From: Hadesarchaea archaeon
GTDB taxonomy: Archaea; Hadarchaeota; Hadarchaeia; Hadarchaeales; Hadarchaeaceae
DNA: 32,037 nucleotides
Assembly (NCBI GenBank): GCA_030672285.1
Contig: DAOVGS010000018.1
Coordinates: forward strand, 1 to 32,037
Direction: 5' to 3'
Position 1 is the stretch's first letter. The number at the start of each line of letters is the position of its first letter. The notes under the pieces are model-generated. The model did not search any database, was not told where the DNA came from, and was given only the letters and a program-made list of their open reading frames with translations. Below, piece after piece: positions 5,141 through 25,166 of this stretch. The position numbers and the translations under genes are program-made.

Positions 5141-5524
5141 CTACCTATGAGCGGAGGAGGTAGTCGATTTCTTGCCCTTCGTGATGGAGATTCCCTGCCC
5201 CGTCAGCATTATCTTCACCTTCTCCCGCGGGGCGAGGTTCAGGGACTTCGCCATGGCCCTCGGGATCGAGACGACCAGCGACCCTCCGACTTGCTTCAGC
5301 TCACGCTCCTCCTCCAGCCACGGCTTCCAGATCCCGAGCTTGATTGCCTTCTCCTGCGCCCGCGCGACCTGTTCGGCCGTGTAAAATTCCTCCCCACATT
5401 TAGCACATTTGTCCACCTCCAGCTTGGGTTCGATGACTACCCGTCCCATGAGGTAGGGTGCCCTCGCGCGTTTGACCGCCCCCCCGCAAATCGGGCATCG
5501 CTTGAGGTATTTTCCGACCATCAT
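5141..5524 (-). CDS. YgiT-type zinc finger fused to AbrB domain, putative antitoxin
   Basis: A 127-residue fusion. Residues ~9-45 form a zinc ribbon (CPICGG and CAKCGEEFY). After a linker helix, residues ~77-115 form an AbrB-type domain (VGGSLVVSIPRAMAKSLNLA). MqsA-like antitoxins have a zinc domain plus a DNA-binding domain; here AbrB replaces the usual HTH. It overlaps the stop of the upstream toxin-like gene by 4 bp (ATGA), so the order is toxin first, antitoxin second. Its last codons lie in the repeat that also flanks the AbrB-PIN module. Confidence 0.8.
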   Translation of the reverse strand: MMVGKYLKRCPICGGAVKRARAPYLMGRVVIEPKLEVDKCAKCGEEFYTAEQVARAQEKAIKLGIWKPWLEEERELKQVGGSLVVSIPRAMAKSLNLAPREKVKIMLTGQGISITKGKKSTTSSAHR

Positions 5525-5772
5525 ATCGCTCTCCTTGTGGTTTGTCCAATGTTTATCACGACGATTTTGTCGGCCAGTTCAGCATACCTGATGAGGACGA
5601 ACTTTCCGGCGAATTTGTCCTGCGCCAGCCATTTTCCGGCCTTTCGACTTTCAAGTTTCCGCTCCCCACCTTCTATCGCGGCGACCAACCTTTGAACCGA
5701 CATGCCGAGGTGATCCATCTCGCGCCGTGCCGACTTGGTTATCACCAGACGTTTCCCCTTCGTGTATAACAT
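5521..5772 (-). CDS. DUF4258/RelE-like small toxin candidate
   Basis: An 83-residue basic protein. The start VITKSARREMDHLGMSVQRL resembles DUF4258 proteins, where an early His follows a helix leading to an 'RGIS'-like turn. The second half (KWLAQDKFAGKFVLIRYAEL then DKIVVINIGQTTR) gives the strands expected of a RelE/DUF4258 fold. DUF4258 genes typically pair with YgiT-type zinc-finger genes, exactly the arrangement here with the overlapping downstream gene. Catalytic residues are not assigned. A copy of the shared TATA/inverted-repeat element lies 56 bp upstream, and a repeated GTTAAA stretch lies nearer the ATG. Confidence 0.65.
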   Translation of the reverse strand: MLYTKGKRLVITKSARREMDHLGMSVQRLVAAIEGGERKLESRKAGKWLAQDKFAGKFVLIRYAELADKIVVINIGQTTRRAI

Positions 5773-5827
5773 TTGTTTAACCTTTATTTAACTTTTTAGG
5801 GTGGATTTTCGGTGCCCGGTTTAAACA

Positions 5828-5867
5828 CTCCCGCCGAGGCTTTGCGCGGGGGTTGTTTATAAAGAGG
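5828..5867 (-). promoter_or_regulatory. Shared TATA/GC-inverted-repeat element, copy A
   Basis: Read on the minus strand: a TATA box (TTTATAAA, 5856-5863), then a C-run, then CCGCGCAAAGCCTCGGCGGG. The GC arms form an imperfect inverted repeat around CAAAGCCT. The TATA-to-arm distance puts the expected transcription start at the end of the repeat. It points into the toxin-like gene starting at 5772. Confidence 0.65.
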
Positions 5868-5894
5868 AAAACGTGGGGCTTGATTTAACCGACA

Positions 5895-5910
5895 TTATCA
5901 AAAATGATAA
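5895..5910. promoter_or_regulatory. Inverted repeat upstream of element copy A
   Basis: TTATCA-AAAA-TGATAA is a perfect 6-bp inverted repeat ~30 bp upstream of the TATA box of copy A and just past the end of the small ORF at 5930. It could be an operator or a weak terminator hairpin; the sequence does not decide. Confidence 0.3.
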
Positions 5911-5929
5911 GTTGGGTTGATTGAATCAG

Positions 5930-6100
5930 TTAACCCCTAAGCACCCGCCATGTTCGCACCGCTTCAGCTCGCGCCGGCCGCCCCTCGACAAAAATCTCCA
6001 TCGCCCGGTGCCGCGAAGTCCACTGAATCAGCCTGGGCTTCGAGATCCGCCTGCCCACGCACCTTATCTTCTCCGCCTCTATCCTATCGCTCCGGTTCAA
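5930..6100 (-). CDS. Small basic protein, overlaps the RHH regulator gene
   Basis: An uninterrupted 56-codon frame from TTG 6100 to TAA 5930. It overlaps the 3' end of the ribbon-helix-helix gene by 17 bp in another frame. GGGGGGAGG about 6 bp before the TTG would serve as SD. The product is strongly basic, with stretches RIEAEKIRCVGRRIS, IQWTSRHRAMEIFVEG and AVRTWRVLRG. This composition is more protein-like than the other two frames, which are broken or Gly/Ala-rich. It may be a nucleic-acid-binding partner of the upstream regulator. Family unknown; it could also be a remnant. Confidence 0.45.
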   Translation of the reverse strand: MNRSDRIEAEKIRCVGRRISKPRLIQWTSRHRAMEIFVEGRPARAEAVRTWRVLRG

Positions 6101-6416
6101 CCCAACCCTCCCCCCACAGTTCCAGCAGGAGCTCGTTGACGAGGTCGAAGTCTATCCTCAGGGCATCGCTTATCTCATCCGCACGCACGCGCTCCCTGCC
6201 CTTCAGGTACCGCTGGATCTCCTTCTTCGCCCGCCCCTTGGGCACGTCGCGGTAGGTGACGACTTCCAGGCCCCGAAGGTGCTCGGCGTAGTGTTTTATT
6301 GCCCCCCTTATCGCCTCCGCTTTCGAAACCCTGAGCCTTTCCGTAATCGCGTTCAAATCCTTCTGGCTCCCCGTGAGGTCAACCGGATAGACTAGCCTCT
6401 CGGTTTTCACGGGCAT
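6084..6416 (-). CDS. Ribbon-helix-helix plus winged-helix regulator
   Basis: A 110-residue protein from ATG 6416. Residues 1-45 (TERLVYPVDLTGSQKDLN then RLRVSKAEAIRGAIKHY) fit a ribbon-helix-helix DNA-binding domain. Residues ~55-110 look like a compact winged helix (EIQRYLKGRERVRADEISDA, ending LWGEGWVEPER). GAGGAG directly precedes this ATG. The frame is open further upstream to 6584, but that extension is encoded by the promoter element and AT-rich repeats, so it is rejected. The combination of two DNA-binding domains suggests a repressor acting on the adjacent repeated sites. Confidence 0.65.
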   Translation of the reverse strand: MPVKTERLVYPVDLTGSQKDLNAITERLRVSKAEAIRGAIKHYAEHLRGLEVVTYRDVPKGRAKKEIQRYLKGRERVRADEISDALRIDFDLVNELLLELWGEGWVEPER

Positions 6417-6419
6417 CTC

Positions 6420-6450
6420 CTCATTGTATAGGTTGTATAAATTTGTATAA
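6420..6450 (-). promoter_or_regulatory. AT-rich tandem repeats before the RHH regulator
   Basis: On the minus strand the leader carries TTTATACAAATTTATACAA followed by CCTATACAATG, giving three tandem TATACAA units at ~10-bp spacing just before GAGGAG-ATG. A similar AT-rich arrangement (TATATAAACTTATATAACC) precedes the other regulator at 7159. These could be a second TATA box or helical-phase operator sites for the regulator itself. Confidence 0.4.
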
Positions 6451-6486
6451 ATATCTGCTGGTGTGGCCTCGGATTTCTTCAACGCT

Positions 6487-6525
6487 TCCCGCCGAGGCTT
6501 TGGGCGGGGGTTCTTTATAAGGGGG
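6487..6525 (-). promoter_or_regulatory. Shared TATA/GC-inverted-repeat element, copy B
   Basis: Minus strand: CTTATAAAGAA, C-run, then CCCGCCCAAAGCCTCGGCGG. The arms CCCGCC/GGCGGG form a perfect 6-bp inverted repeat with a 9-nt spacer. It lies ~70 bp upstream of the RHH regulator start at 6416, with the AT-rich repeats in between. Confidence 0.65.
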
Positions 6526-6595
6526 CAAAAATCGTCGGGGCGATGCTCAAGAGCGCTCGAAAGCCTTATTTGCTGTAAAAACAATTCTTAACTGC

Positions 6596-6617
6596 CGTGA
6601 GGGGTGTGTCTTTTCCG
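6596..6617 (-). repeat. tRNA fragment copy (D-loop to anticodon) of the 6722-6794 tRNA
   Basis: These 22 nt match tRNA positions 6757-6778 at 21 of 22 sites, in the same orientation, 161 bp downstream of the tRNA in its direction of transcription. The match starts at the D-loop GGA and stops inside the anticodon loop; the flanks do not match well. Candidates are an attachment-site remnant, a tRNA pseudogene, or a functional tRNA-mimic RNA. Confidence 0.6.
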
Positions 6618-6688
6618 GGTTGGTCCCGGTTTTTAAACCCATTGATTTTTCTTTTTTCTCGTTTATTCTCTGCTTTTGTATCCAAAGT

Positions 6689-6805
6689 GGAGGCAAGCCC
6701 ACGCCCACGGCAGCGTGGTCGTGGCCCCGACGGGATTCGAACCCGCATCTCACCCTCCGTGAGGGGTGTGTCTTCTCCATTAGACTACGGGACCGGCTTG
6801 CCTCC
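6689..6805 (-). other. Leader-trailer helix and hairpin enclosing a pre-tRNA
   Basis: GGAGGCAAGCC in the tRNA 5' leader (6795-6805, minus strand) is perfectly complementary to GGCTTGCCTCC in the trailer (6689-6699). Leader and trailer can thus form an 11-12 bp helix around the tRNA. Between the tRNA 3' end and the trailer arm, 6699-6724 forms a hairpin with 10 of 11 pairs and loop CTGC (on the minus strand). Its arm includes the last three tRNA nucleotides, so it competes with the acceptor end. Confidence 0.55.
6722..6794 (-). tRNA. tRNA, Arg-like, with apparent 8-nt anticodon loop
   Basis: A 73-nt cloverleaf. Acceptor GGTCCCG/CGGGGCC (one G-U pair); D stem GTCT/AGAC with loop AATGGAGA; anticodon stem CACCC/GGGTG; T arm GCGGG-TTCGAAT-CCCGT; discriminator A; no encoded CCA. 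The anticodon loop reads CTCACGGA, eight nt instead of seven. Directly after U33 the triplet is CAC (Val). The loop end GGA, A20 in the D loop and the UAG-CU-type D arm resemble archaeal Arg tRNAs, where dropping one nucleotide would give an NCG anticodon. Identity is therefore open. Element copy C lies directly upstream as its promoter. Confidence 0.75.
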
Positions 6806-6840
6806 AGCTAGGCTTTGGGTGGGGGTTGTTTATTAAGGGG
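6802..6840 (-). promoter_or_regulatory. Shared TATA element, copy C (tRNA promoter)
   Basis: Minus strand: CCCCTTAATAAACAACCCCC then ACCCAAAGCCTAGCTGGAG. TATA and the CAAAGCCT core are kept, but the GC arms are partly lost. It ends 8 bp before the tRNA, so transcription would start in the short leader. This supports the element being a core promoter. Confidence 0.65.
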
Positions 6841-6877
6841 AAAATTGTGTCTCAACAACTTTCGATCCCAAGTGCTA

Positions 6878-7159
6878 CTACACCTTCTTGCTCTCCGCCA
6901 GCAATCTCCTCAGCTTTTCACTGTCAGCGAACACCCAGACTATCCTGCCGTCTTTCGTCACGATTATTTTGTTTGACCTCTGGAGGTACTCGAGGACCAA
7001 ATTAAAGGTCTGGTACATCACCTTCTTCGGCAGATGCCTGAGCAGCTCGGCCTTCGTCGGGTATTCCTTGGCGCTCCTGATGGCGTCCTCGATCATCATG
7101 ACCGTGTCCAGCCGAGGGTAGTGTATTATTTGCCGTCTTTTTCGCGTACTTCCCACCAT
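6878..7159 (-). CDS. Small winged-helix-type regulator
   Basis: A 93-residue basic protein from ATG 7159 (MVGSTRKRRQIIHYPRLDTV). Helices IEDAIRSAKEYPTKAELLRH and MYQTFNLVLEYLQRSNK followed by the hairpin KIIVTKDGRIVWVF fit a winged helix, which in archaea usually means a transcription regulator or plasmid-type DNA-binding protein. The frame is open upstream to 7219, but those codons lie in an AT-rich operator-like leader resembling that of the RHH gene, so the internal ATG is preferred. Element copy D lies 63 bp upstream. Target unknown. Confidence 0.6.
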   Translation of the reverse strand: MVGSTRKRRQIIHYPRLDTVMMIEDAIRSAKEYPTKAELLRHLPKKVMYQTFNLVLEYLQRSNKIIVTKDGRIVWVFADSEKLRRLLAESKKV

Positions 7160-7221
7160 GAATTGTTGGTTATATAAGTTTATATAATTAGCTGGATTCG
7201 TATCAAACGTTTTGTTCATCT

Positions 7222-7260
7222 TTCCCGCCGAGGCTTTGGGCGGGGGTTCTTTATAATGGG
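7222..7260 (-). promoter_or_regulatory. Shared TATA/GC-inverted-repeat element, copy D
   Basis: Minus strand: CCCATTATAAAGAACCCCC then GCCCAAAGCCTCGGCGGG. The perfect CCCGCC/GGCGGG arms match copy B almost base for base. It points to the winged-helix gene starting at 7159. Confidence 0.65.
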
Positions 7261-7374
7261 AAAAAATCCTGAAAAGTTGGAGGAATAGACAAAATTTTCC
7301 TAAATTTTCCTAAACTTTTAAACTTTAATTAGTCGGTTCTACTTTTTTGTTTGTGTAACAGGAGCATAATCGTG

Positions 7375-20759: not shown

Positions 20760-20848
20760 CTGCTCACCCTCTAGGCTATTTTTTACCACTTTAAAGAACC
20801 TCCGTATCCCGTTGGGCGGCACACGTATGTCACATCTGCGCAAATTTT

Positions 20849-20887
20849 CCCCCTTATAAAGAACCCCCACGCAAAGCCTCGGCGGGA
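20849..20887 (+). promoter_or_regulatory. Shared TATA/GC-inverted-repeat element, copy E
   Basis: CCCCCTTATAAAGAACCCCC then ACGCAAAGCCTCGGCGGGA, ending 5 bp before the ATG at 20892. TATA (20854-20860) to ATG distance predicts a start at ~20884, inside the right arm, so the mRNA would be almost leaderless with GGGAG acting as a weak SD. Confidence 0.65.
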
Positions 20888-20891
20888 GAGA

Positions 20892-21560
20892 ATGGATGAG
20901 AAAACCATGACCAAGCTGAGTCTGCTTTGCTCGCTGACGGGGCTGGCGGCTATCTACGCCGCGGCGATGCAGGTCCGCCCGACGATGACTCCCATCGCGA
21001 GCCTGGACAACGAGTTCGTCGGGCTGCAGGTGACAGTTTCCGGGCAGGTCGTCGACTCCTACGAGCACCCCGATGGGCACCTCTTCCTGAAGCTGCGCGA
21101 CAACTCGGGAGGCGTGGTCAGCGTTCCGGTGTTCGCCCGGGTGCGCGCGGAGCTGAGCGAGCCAATAGAGTTTCTGGACATCGTGCAGGTTGCAGGCGAG
21201 GTGACGCTCTACAAGGGCGAGCTCGAGGTGATTCCCAGAGGGGCGGGTGACTTGCGAGTGGTGCACACGGCTCCGGCCAAGCTCTCGAGCCTGAGCCGGG
21301 AGCATGTGGACATTCCGGTGAAGGTGCAGGCCACCATCGTAGAGCGCGAAATCGTGGGGGGTGGAAGCCTGATCCTGACGCTCCAGGAGGATGACAGCCA
21401 GCTGTTGGTCTTCGTCCCCGCATGGGTGGTTGAGGATGGCTTGCCCGAGCTCCACGTCGGCAACGTGGTGTGCGTCGACGGGTGGCTCCAGCTTTACAAC
21501 GACGAGCTCGAGCTGAAGCTCGGGGCCCCATCGCACCTGCGGGTCGTCGAGGCGGCGTAG
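20892..21560 (+). CDS. OB-fold protein with N-terminal membrane helix
   Basis: A 222-residue protein. An N-terminal hydrophobic helix (LSLLCSLTGLAAIYAAAM) could be an anchor or signal. Two OB-fold-like repeats follow: residues ~45-120 (VTVSGQVVDSYEHPDGHLFL, IVQVAGEVTLYKGELEVIP) and ~140-220 (IPVKVQATIVEREIVGGGSL, NVVCVDGWLQLYNDELELKL). Both share the 'V.GxVxxYxxELEL' strand pattern of nucleic-acid-binding OB proteins, but with a membrane helix the ligand may differ. Its stop abuts the ATG of the permease gene, so the two are probably translationally coupled. Confidence 0.65.
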   Translation: MDEKTMTKLSLLCSLTGLAAIYAAAMQVRPTMTPIASLDNEFVGLQVTVSGQVVDSYEHPDGHLFLKLRDNSGGVVSVPVFARVRAELSEPIEFLDIVQVAGEVTLYKGELEVIPRGAGDLRVVHTAPAKLSSLSREHVDIPVKVQATIVEREIVGGGSLILTLQEDDSQLLVFVPAWVVEDGLPELHVGNVVCVDGWLQLYNDELELKLGAPSHLRVVEAA

Positions 21561-22802
21561 ATGCTGGAGGTGCTCGCCTACACGCTGCTGGGCGTGGGGC
21601 TGGGCACCTTCACGGGCTTGATCCCTGGCGTCCACGTGAACAACCTCGCGCCCTTATTGGTCGGAGTAGCAGCGGTCTCAGGCCTGCCACCGATGAACAT
21701 CGTGGCCGCTATCGTGGCGATGATGATGGCCCACACTATCATCAGCTACATCCCAGCGACCTTCTTGGGGGCGCCCGAGCCCGGGACTGAGCTCTCGGTG
21801 CTGCCCGCCCACCGCCTGCTGCTCGAGGGGCGGGGATACGAGGTCATCCGCCTGACCGCGTTCGGCTGTCTCGGGGCCCTGATGCTGAGCGCCGCGCTCG
21901 CCCTGCCCCTTTCGCTCATATTCGCCCCCGCCTACGCGTTCGTCCAGCCCCAGATGCACTGGCTACTACTCTCGGTGATCGTAATCATGATCGCGCTCGA
22001 GCGCTCGCGTTCGGGCATCCTGTGGGCGATGACAATTTTTCTGCTCTCGGGTCTGCTGGGTCTGTTCACGTTGGACACCAACCTCGTGAGGGGAGACGTG
22101 GCCCTGTTACCCTTGCTCAGCGGGCTCTTCGGGGTGAGCGTTCTCCTGCTTAGCGCCGTCCGCAAGAGCAGCCTTCCCAAACAGAAAGTTGATAACCCGG
22201 AGCCGCTCGAGTTTCGTGAAAACGCGAGAGCTTTGTGCGCGGGAACCGGGGCTGGCGTCCTGACGGGCATCATCCCGGGCATAGGCCCATCGCAGGGGAC
22301 GGTGCTCGCCCAGCTGGTGACCCGCTCGAGCGGCACGCGTGAGTTCTTGGTGGGGGTGAGCGGGGTGAACACGGCGAAGGCGCTATTCTCATTTGTCGCG
22401 CTTTACGCCATCGCCAGACCCAGGAGCGGTGCAGCCGTCGCCGTCGACCAACTCGTGGATAAAGTTGGTTTGAATGAACTCATCTTTTTGATAGGAGTCG
22501 CGCTCGTCGCGGGGGGGATTGCGACGGTGCTTCACTTGAGGCTCGGCAGGCTCGCGGCCCGCCACATCGGGGGGCTGCCTTACCGGACGATGTGCCTGAC
22601 GGTGATCTCGGGCATGGCGGTGATGACGTTTTGTTACGCGGGTTTGATGGGCCTGCTCATTTTAGCAACTGCGACTGCGATCGGGATACTTCCCGCGGTG
22701 GCCAAGGTCAAGCGTACCCACTGCATGGGGGTGATAATGTTGCCTTGCATCCTCTATTTTGCGGGGGCGAAGGATGGAGTGCTCGCGGCGCTCGGCTTAT
22801 AA
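21561..22802 (+). CDS. TctA/DUF112-family membrane permease
   Basis: A 413-residue protein with about ten hydrophobic segments. Two similar halves each carry a re-entrant-like motif: GLGTFTGLIPGVHVNNLAPL near the N-terminus and AGVLTGIIPGIGPSQGTVLA at the middle. The 'GxxTGxIPGxxxxxxxxL' repeat is characteristic of the tripartite tricarboxylate transporter TctA family, of which DUF112 is the archaeal branch. No periplasmic-binding or small-subunit gene is adjacent, so it may work alone or with the OB-fold protein encoded directly upstream with zero spacing. Substrate unknown. Confidence 0.8.
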   Translation: MLEVLAYTLLGVGLGTFTGLIPGVHVNNLAPLLVGVAAVSGLPPMNIVAAIVAMMMAHTIISYIPATFLGAPEPGTELSVLPAHRLLLEGRGYEVIRLTAFGCLGALMLSAALALPLSLIFAPAYAFVQPQMHWLLLSVIVIMIALERSRSGILWAMTIFLLSGLLGLFTLDTNLVRGDVALLPLLSGLFGVSVLLLSAVRKSSLPKQKVDNPEPLEFRENARALCAGTGAGVLTGIIPGIGPSQGTVLAQLVTRSSGTREFLVGVSGVNTAKALFSFVALYAIARPRSGAAVAVDQLVDKVGLNELIFLIGVALVAGGIATVLHLRLGRLAARHIGGLPYRTMCLTVISGMAVMTFCYAGLMGLLILATATAIGILPAVAKVKRTHCMGVIMLPCILYFAGAKDGVLAALGL

Positions 22803-24927: not shown

Positions 24928-24953
24928 GTTCACACGTGTGCATTGCTGAAATT

Positions 24954-24994
24954 TTCCCCTTTATAAACAACCCCCGCCCAAAGCCCCGGCGGGA
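24954..24994 (+). promoter_or_regulatory. Shared TATA/GC-inverted-repeat element, copy F
   Basis: TTCCCCTTTATAAACAACCC followed by CCGCCCAAAGCCCCGGCGGG; the CCCGCC/GGCGGG arms are perfect, and one base of the CAAAGCCT core is changed. It lies 83 bp upstream of the intron-containing tRNA, with the tRNA-fragment copy in between. The fragment would therefore be part of the same transcript. Confidence 0.65.
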
Positions 24995-25014
24995 GAACAG
25001 TGAAAAAAAGGAAA

Positions 25015-25046
25015 AACGGACAACATCCCGGTCTGGCAACTAAATC
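25015..25046 (+). repeat. tRNA fragment copy (D-loop to anticodon) upstream of the intron tRNA
   Basis: 25015-25037 matches 25090-25112 of the tRNA at 22 of 23 sites. The fragment then continues AACTAAATC, resembling the tRNA 3' exon (AACTGGAAATCC) without the intron. It could therefore derive from a spliced or intron-free tRNA copy that lost its ends. Same orientation, 75 bp upstream. Confidence 0.6.
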
Positions 25047-25076: not shown

Positions 25077-25166
25077 GGGCGCGTAGTGTAACGGATAACA
25101 TCCCGGTCTGGCGGTCGCTCGTGCGGCCGAAAACTGGAAATCCGGGTTCGAATCCCGGCGCGCCCG
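25077..25166 (+). tRNA. tRNA, Arg-like, with 17-nt bulge-helix-bulge intron
   Basis: Acceptor GGGCGCG/CGCGCCC with discriminator G; D stem GTGT/ACAT with loop AACGGATA; anticodon stem CCGGT/ACTGG; T arm CCGGG-TTCGAAT-CCCGG. The anticodon loop holds an intron, predicted at 25115-25131. TGGC/GCCG forms a 4-bp central helix flanked by 3-nt bulges GGT and AAA, and CGC/GCG with loop TCGT closes the tip. Cutting after the second bulge base leaves loop CTGGCGGA, eight nt. After U33 this reads GGC (Ala), but discriminator G, A20, the acceptor sequence and the GGA end favour Arg(GCG) with one extra nucleotide. Exact splice sites need RNA data. Confidence 0.8.

What the first reader, a model, noticed from the sequence alone, without database searches (positions are those of the whole stretch)
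5828..7260. A recurrent TATA plus GC-inverted-repeat element drives six unrelated genes
Six ~40-bp copies (A 5828-5867, B 6487-6525, C 6802-6840, D 7222-7260, E 20849-20887, F 24954-24994) share TTTATAA, a C-run, and CCCGCC-CAAAGCCTC-GGCGGG. Each points into a gene: a toxin candidate, two small regulators, two tRNA genes and an OB-fold protein gene. In copies C and E the TATA-to-start distance shows the inverted repeat lies between TATA and the transcription start. This suggests a lineage-specific core promoter or a repressor-controlled regulon linking tRNAs with TA/regulator genes. The sequence match is direct; function is inferred.
Basis: partly seen in the sequence, partly recalled or inferred. 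Interest (0 to 1): 0.75.

Follow-up and report, generated by a model that had tools for sequence, protein, structure and literature searches.

The report
Shared pilus-and-toxin promoter in Hadesarchaea
About twenty genes per genome in one family of uncultured deep-subsurface archaea start behind the same roughly 45-letter promoter, which ties hair-like surface fibres (pili) to toxin-antitoxin genes and odd tRNA-like RNAs and may be read by a second, specialised version of a basic transcription factor.

Summary
The element is real. The window holds six copies and this 0.96-Mb Hadesarchaea genome about 22; shuffled sequence holds essentially none. It occurs in 20 of 28 genomes of the phylum, all in one family, with zero hits for the reversed pattern. 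In 128 distinct sites the conserved block runs from a TT-plus-C-run through TATAAA to GGCGGGA; in 71 a start codon begins at the fourth base after it. Before six groups of matching genes the block is 73-85% identical, while the flank upstream is at chance level. It is therefore a selected core promoter reaching from upstream of the TATA box to the predicted start of nearly leaderless transcripts. The inverted repeat is not conserved (3 of 124 sites pair fully), and ordinary tRNA genes lack the element. The vertically conserved core is type IV pili: the pilin operon and the pilus ATPase operon. Toxin-antitoxin, Cas2-like, nuclease and regulator genes are added in individual genomes. Best mechanism, inferred: the promoter is read by a second TFB with a changed BRE-recognition helix, whose own operon carries a diverged copy in register. 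Unexpected: the tRNA-like genes behind the element carry a second copy of their own anticodon-arm sequence.

The parts
5827..5873 (-). Copy A, 47-bp promoter element; predicted transcript start about 5832; precedes an 83-aa RelE/HicA-like toxin candidate (5521-5772) and a YgiT/MqsA-zinc-finger plus MazE antitoxin candidate (5141-5524)
   Evidence: the same element-gene pair in G004 and G014
6485..6531 (-).
6800..6846 (-). Copy C, weakest copy; precedes a tRNA-like RNA
6689..6805 (-). Predicted tRNA-like RNA behind copy C: tRNA (6722-6794) with an aberrant, 8-nt anticodon loop, enclosed with a 3' hairpin by a long helix GGAGGCAAGCC / GGCTTGCCTCC that begins at the predicted transcript start
6595..6616 (-). 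Second, same-sense copy of the tRNA's D-3'/anticodon segment (GGAAAAGACACACCCCTCACGG; original at 6757-6778)
7221..7267 (-). Copy D; ATG at 7219 (offset 3) of a 113-aa winged-helix-like protein (6878-7219)
20843..20889 (+). Copy E; ATG at 20892 (offset 4) of a membrane-anchored OB-fold protein (20892-21560), followed by a TctA-family membrane protein (21561-22802); same element and gene in several other genera
24950..24996 (+). Copy F; precedes a ~80-nt leader and an aberrant tRNA gene
25015..25037 (+). Leader copy (AACGGACAACATCCCGGTCTGGC) of the D-3'/anticodon segment of the following tRNA (25090-25112)
25077..25166 (+). tRNA behind copy F with a large insertion in the anticodon loop (ARAGORN: no isotype)

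Best explanation
The element is a dedicated archaeal core promoter class. A BRE-like box (TT plus C-run), the TATA box and a fixed block ending at the transcription start (predicted at the first G of GGGA) together direct nearly leaderless transcripts whose start codon follows a few bases later. It co-ordinates a regulon whose vertically inherited core is type IV pili and other surface genes, joined by toxin-antitoxin, Cas2-like, nuclease and regulator genes and by tRNA-like RNAs. Shown from sequence: the element, its register, its selection, its family restriction and its gene set. Inferred: it is read by TFB2, a divergent second TFB of these archaea, which reads the upstream box through its altered C-terminal helix and possibly the downstream block through its B-reader/linker, and which reinforces its own operon. 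This would work like an alternative sigma factor with an extended promoter.
For: About 22 sites per genome, essentially none in shuffled genomes. Present in 20 of 28 genomes of the phylum, reversed control 0. Start codon at one fixed offset in 71 of 128 sites, 96 of 128 within 0-6 nt against 11% at random. Element 73-85% identical between orthologous genes, upstream flank 42-55%, random 47%. Pilin and CL1 promoters keep it in register in most genera of the family; the pilus operon reads element-CL3-CL2-T2SSE ATPase-HTH-T2SSF. General promoters here have an A-rich BRE, the element T/C. TFB1 keeps the canonical helix VTEVTVRNRYKEL; TFB2 has GVGVSSLS-type sequence. The flavoprotein-TFB2 operon carries a diverged element at the same distance from its ATG in seven genomes of four genera, up to 28.8 bits; a comparable score arises by chance with P about 3e-4 per locus. 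Genomes with two or more elements have TFB2 in 16 of 17 cases, others in 6 of 11 (Fisher P 0.022).
Against: G021 (90% complete) keeps the element at its pilin gene but no TFB2 was found; G008 (66% complete) has eight elements and no TFB2. TFB2 also occurs in family f3, where this element is absent and the pilin promoter has a different GC block. The co-occurrence test ignores phylogeny. The TFB2-operon copies lack the GCCTCGGC half, and the genome's own copy scores below the best shuffle of the whole genome. A TFB is not known to read bases from TATA to +1 with such stringency, so another factor may be needed. No transcript 5' ends and no binding data exist.
Confidence: 0.5

Rival explanations
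1. A conventional regulator (activator or repressor) other than a TFB binds the non-palindromic block between TATA and the start site, while TFB1 does the initiation. Repression by occlusion is the classical archaeal arrangement.
For: The strongest conservation (AAC C..CC..CAAAG.C...GGCGGG) lies where archaeal repressors act. The HTH_23 family CL7 is itself mostly element-driven and one member lies inside the pilus operon.
Against: CL7 is found in only 10 of 28 genomes and not in element-rich G014, G010, G004. The block has no conserved dyad. It does not explain the unusual box upstream of TATA.
Confidence: 0.33
2. The element is a recombination or cassette site (integron-like), so the fixed distance to start codons reflects cassette insertion rather than transcription.
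For: Window copies D-C-B-A form a same-orientation array of small genes. The element is gained and lost at homologous genes. The first codons of unrelated genes can be shared. Integrons are reported from Hadarchaeota (PMC9668308).
Against: No tyrosine recombinase in this genome, in G007 or in the element-richest genome G020, and none on contigs with element-linked tRNA-like genes. The fold needed for attC-like sites is not conserved. Orthologous pilin loci keep the element in register across genera. It contains a TATA box.
Confidence: 0.08
3. A mobile repeat (MITE-like) that spread recently and carries a promoter by accident.
For: Many copies, some clustered, some with shared downstream sequence.
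Against: Conservation stops at the start codon; the same orthologues carry it in many genera with substitutions scattered but consensus kept; none in viral contigs.
Confidence: 0.05

Closest known systems
UV-inducible promoters of Sulfolobus acidocaldarius with the A(N)TTTC box (ups pili, tfb3; PMC5817253)
   Same: T-rich box upstream of TATA, weak canonical BRE, type IV pili and an alternative TFB gene among the targets.
   Different: Here the box is followed by a C-run directly before TATA and lies about 4 nt nearer the predicted start; a long block downstream of TATA is conserved as well; TFB2 is a full-length TFB with zinc ribbon and two cyclin repeats; no link to UV known.
Shared early-gene / anti-defence regulatory sequences of archaeal viruses (SIRV2 and others; PMC11065993)
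   Same: One long consensus around BRE and TATA in front of many small unrelated genes.
   Different: Those are viral, virus-specific and have a strong purine-rich BRE; this one is chromosomal, family-wide, has a T/C-rich BRE region and a vertical core of pilus operons; none found in viral contigs.
Multiple TFBs as global regulators (haloarchaea, Pyrococcus TFB2), from general knowledge
   Same: A second TFB as candidate selector of promoters.
   Different: To my knowledge no described case combines it with a rigid ~45-bp promoter that reaches the start site.
TFB-RF1 (PF1088) recruitment at weak BREs (PMC5937170)
   Same: Non-canonical BRE compensated by an extra factor.
   Different: That is described for an ABC-transporter operon with a weak BRE; here the extra conservation is mainly downstream of TATA, at about 20 promoters.

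Membership tests
Alternative-TFB-dependent promoter class | More than one TFB gene in the genome | tested here: met
   TFB1 and divergent TFB2 in this genome and in most of the family
Alternative-TFB-dependent promoter class | Second TFB has a different BRE-reading helix | tested here: met
   VTEVTVRNRYKEL in TFB1, GVGVSSLS-type in TFB2
Alternative-TFB-dependent promoter class | Promoters share a BRE distinct from general promoters | tested here: met
   TT + C-run against A-rich
Alternative-TFB-dependent promoter class | Element and second TFB occur together across genomes | tested here: inconclusive
   Fisher P 0.022, not corrected for phylogeny; exceptions G021, G008
Alternative-TFB-dependent promoter class | Transcription depends on that TFB | not testable with these tools
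   needs in vitro transcription or genetics
Sulfolobus A(N)TTTC / TFB3 regulon | A(N)TTTC at -44 to -39 from the start | tested here: inconclusive
   A/T-T-T-T-C present but at about -40 to -35 from the predicted start (PMC5817253)
Sulfolobus A(N)TTTC / TFB3 regulon | TFB3-type truncated TFB | tested here: not met
   TFB2 has zinc ribbon and two cyclin repeats; that TFB3 is truncated is from general knowledge
Palindromic repressor operator | Conserved dyad symmetry | tested here: not met
   3 of 124 sites with all six pairs, 9 of 744 compensatory cells
Integron cassette array | IntI-type tyrosine recombinase | tested here: not met
   no PF00589 match in G000, G007, G020; genomes incomplete
Integron cassette array | attC R/L boxes | not tested
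   no attC model run; only the absence of a conserved hairpin was tested
Viral early / anti-defence regulatory sequence | Located in viral genomes | tested here: not met
   no match in 2.9 million viral contigs

The most novel reading that the evidence does not exclude
An archaeal counterpart of an alternative sigma factor: one specialised TFB reads an entire ~45-bp promoter from BRE to start site, controls its own operon, and switches on pili, toxin-antitoxin genes and a new class of tRNA-like RNAs that keep a second copy of their own anticodon-arm sequence.
Probability: 0.33. Interest if true: 0.8.

Novelty: new variant of a known kind. Interest (0 to 1): 0.62.

Why it matters
Archaeal promoters are usually described as BRE plus TATA with little fixed sequence up to the start site. 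A family-wide promoter of some 45 bp, in fixed register with the start codon and linked to a second TFB, would show that TFB choice can work like sigma-factor choice. It also yields a defined regulon (pili, toxin-antitoxin, nucleases, tRNA-like RNAs) in a phylum with hardly any cultured members, so its function becomes testable from sequence and in vitro.

Tried and rejected
Inverted repeat as operator or RNA hairpin: pairing not conserved. Promoter common to all tRNA genes: 23 ordinary tRNAs lack it. HTH family CL7 as universal regulator: 10 of 28 genomes only. Viral origin: no match in viral contigs. Integron-like array: no integrase, no conserved fold. Sister class in family f3 with its own consensus: the pattern taken from the f3 pilin promoter was no commoner than its reversed control. 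Relaxed pattern in the poorest family members: a few extra sites in G016, otherwise near control. The first PWM iterations counted off-by-one registers and were redone with de-duplication. Element-linked tRNA copies as remnants of integration: no nearby integrase, left open.

Full report
Observation. Five match TATAANNAACCCCCNCNCAAAGCCNCGGCGGGA exactly, and shuffles of the window give none. The window is contig C41 of a 957,912-base assembly, 82% complete. Exact matches to the core in named genomes all fall in Hadesarchaea/Hadarchaeum MAGs (one set is labelled 'Hodarchaeaceae'). I rebuilt the whole assembly from stretches and scanned it with a 47-position matrix. About 22 sites stand clear; in 20 shuffled genomes the best score was 12.5 bits, and all the clear sites score above 40.

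Distribution. A three-mismatch search of 28 genomes of the phylum found matches in 20, all in the window's own family, with none for the reversed pattern. Counts run from 1 to 25 per genome; families f2, f3 and f4 had none. No exact match to the core occurs in viral contigs.

Anatomy. From 128 distinct sites the conserved stretch is: T-T at -42/-41, C-rich -39 to -35, TTATAAA -34 to -28, then SAACCTCCACCCAAAGCCTCGGCGGGA to -1. Conservation ends there, apart from the start codon. ATG, GTG or TTG begins at the fourth base after the element in 71 of 128 sites, and 96 of 128 have an ORF of at least 45 codons starting 0-6 nt downstream, against 11% of random positions. The distance from TATA and the start of the closing helix of the tRNA-like RNAs both point to the first G of GGGA (-4) as transcript start. 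This is inferred; no 5' ends are available. Summing the columns gives near 59 bits, inflated because orthologues were counted repeatedly.

Selection. Between orthologous genes of different genomes the element is 73-85% identical, while the 45 bp further upstream are 42-55% identical, which is the level of random sequence. For the single-copy pilin gene the element stays in register in most genera of the family and is still recognisable in f2 (G023) and in the most distant genus g10. In f3 the downstream block is different, but a TT/C-rich stretch before an A-rich box remains.

Inverted repeat. CCCGCC/GGCGGG is complete in only 3 of 124 sites. The commonest base at -19 is A, facing C. Double compensatory changes make up 9 of 744 cells. 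The dyad is a feature of some window copies, not of the class.

Genes. Vertically kept targets: a pilin-like operon (CL4, G000:C9) with the convergent gene CL1; an operon of CL3, CL2, a T2SSE ATPase, an HTH protein and a T2SSF protein (G000:C31), that is, type IV pilus assembly; large secreted proteins (CL9); the OB-fold protein with TctA (window copy E); an unknown 107-aa protein (CL0), often with a Cas2-like protein; and an unknown 250-aa protein (CL8, no family match). Scattered targets: RelE/MqsA-type, VapBC and DUF4258 toxin-antitoxin genes, a SNase, a DNA methyltransferase, a Schlafen AlbA_2 protein, LAGLIDADG proteins and HTH_23 proteins. TTG starts are frequent.

Who reads it. General promoters of this genome have an A-rich BRE; the element has T/C there. 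TFB1 was found in all but two of the 28 genomes (both incomplete), and most carry a divergent TFB2. The helix that in TFB1 is the canonical BRE reader (VTEVTVRNRYKEL; role from general knowledge of TFB structures) is replaced in every complete TFB2 by GVGVSSLS-type sequence. TFB2 is encoded behind a flavoprotein in nearly all genomes with both genes on one contig, and in seven genomes of four genera the sequence before that operon is a diverged element in the same register (28.8 bits in G020, 21.9 in G015, lower in others; background about 3e-4 per locus). This copy has GGAGGAGGGG in place of GCCTCGGCGGG. Sulfolobus offers a parallel: tfb3 and ups pili share an A(N)TTTC box upstream of a weak BRE (PMC5817253). 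Against TFB2: G021 and G008 lack it on present assemblies, and f3 has it without this element. I give the promoter-class reading above 0.9 and the full TFB2 mechanism about 0.5.

tRNA-like RNAs. The two window tRNAs and their counterparts behind the element in G007, G009, G014, G015 and G020 are not ordinary. Several have an 8-nt anticodon loop or an insertion there. Those of the C type are enclosed, with a 3' hairpin, by a long helix. All eight intact cases examined carry a second same-sense copy of their own anticodon-5'-arm and loop (14-28 nt), roughly 75-180 bp away, and the copy differs between genomes together with its tRNA. The 23 other tRNA genes of this genome show nothing comparable. 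In G008 and G015 only the 3' part of the F-type tRNA remains, as if the two copies had recombined. Anticodon loops are known integrase crossover sites (PMC8371274), but no integrase lies on these contigs. I leave the function open.

Limits. All genomes are MAGs, many incomplete; ORF calls are mechanical; the 128 sites include orthologues; the search cut-off was set on this family's consensus, so a diverged class elsewhere would be missed.

Noticed in passing
window 6595-6616 (-) and 6757-6778 (-); 25015-25037 (+) and 25090-25112 (+); L163, L134, L183, L217, L225, L214: Every intact tRNA-like gene behind the element has a displaced same-sense copy of its own anticodon-5'-arm/loop sequence, co-varying with the tRNA between genomes; 23 ordinary tRNAs lack it.
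   Followed up: partly
L168 (from 2068), L219 (from 2133), L037 (minus strand, downstream of 4976): Truncated tRNA 3' parts directly behind the element; in L168 and L219 followed by the CL8 gene, in L037 joined to a stretch resembling the start of a Cas2-like gene (GCGAACGTTCGC), with the join at the anticodon loop.
   Followed up: partly
G002:C41, G015:C28, G018:C11, G021:C2, G023:C18, G026:C1: TFB1 genes whose matches are split by more than 1 kb of in-frame sequence (open frames 658-857 aa), probably inteins; in G015 an element-driven LAGLIDADG gene lies next to it (L223).
   Followed up: no
L175, L191, L174, L037: Perfect palindrome GGCGAACGTTCGCC (or its core) at the start of the Cas2-like CL12 ORFs, repeated in L174.
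   Followed up: no
window 6084-6482 and 6878-7219: The genes behind copies B and D share a similar N-terminal segment (..YTNLYNLYN.. / ..YINLYNQQ..), suggesting that promoter and first codons were duplicated together.
   Followed up: no
G000:C24:12929-13272 and C29:9362-9705: Nearly identical element plus HTH gene lies ~300 bp from the end of two contigs: a recent duplication or an assembly break at a repeat.
   Followed up: no
L039 / L127: In G013 the OB-fold gene start is fused to the TctA gene end (..EFVGLKDGVLAALGL), an apparent deletion.
   Followed up: no
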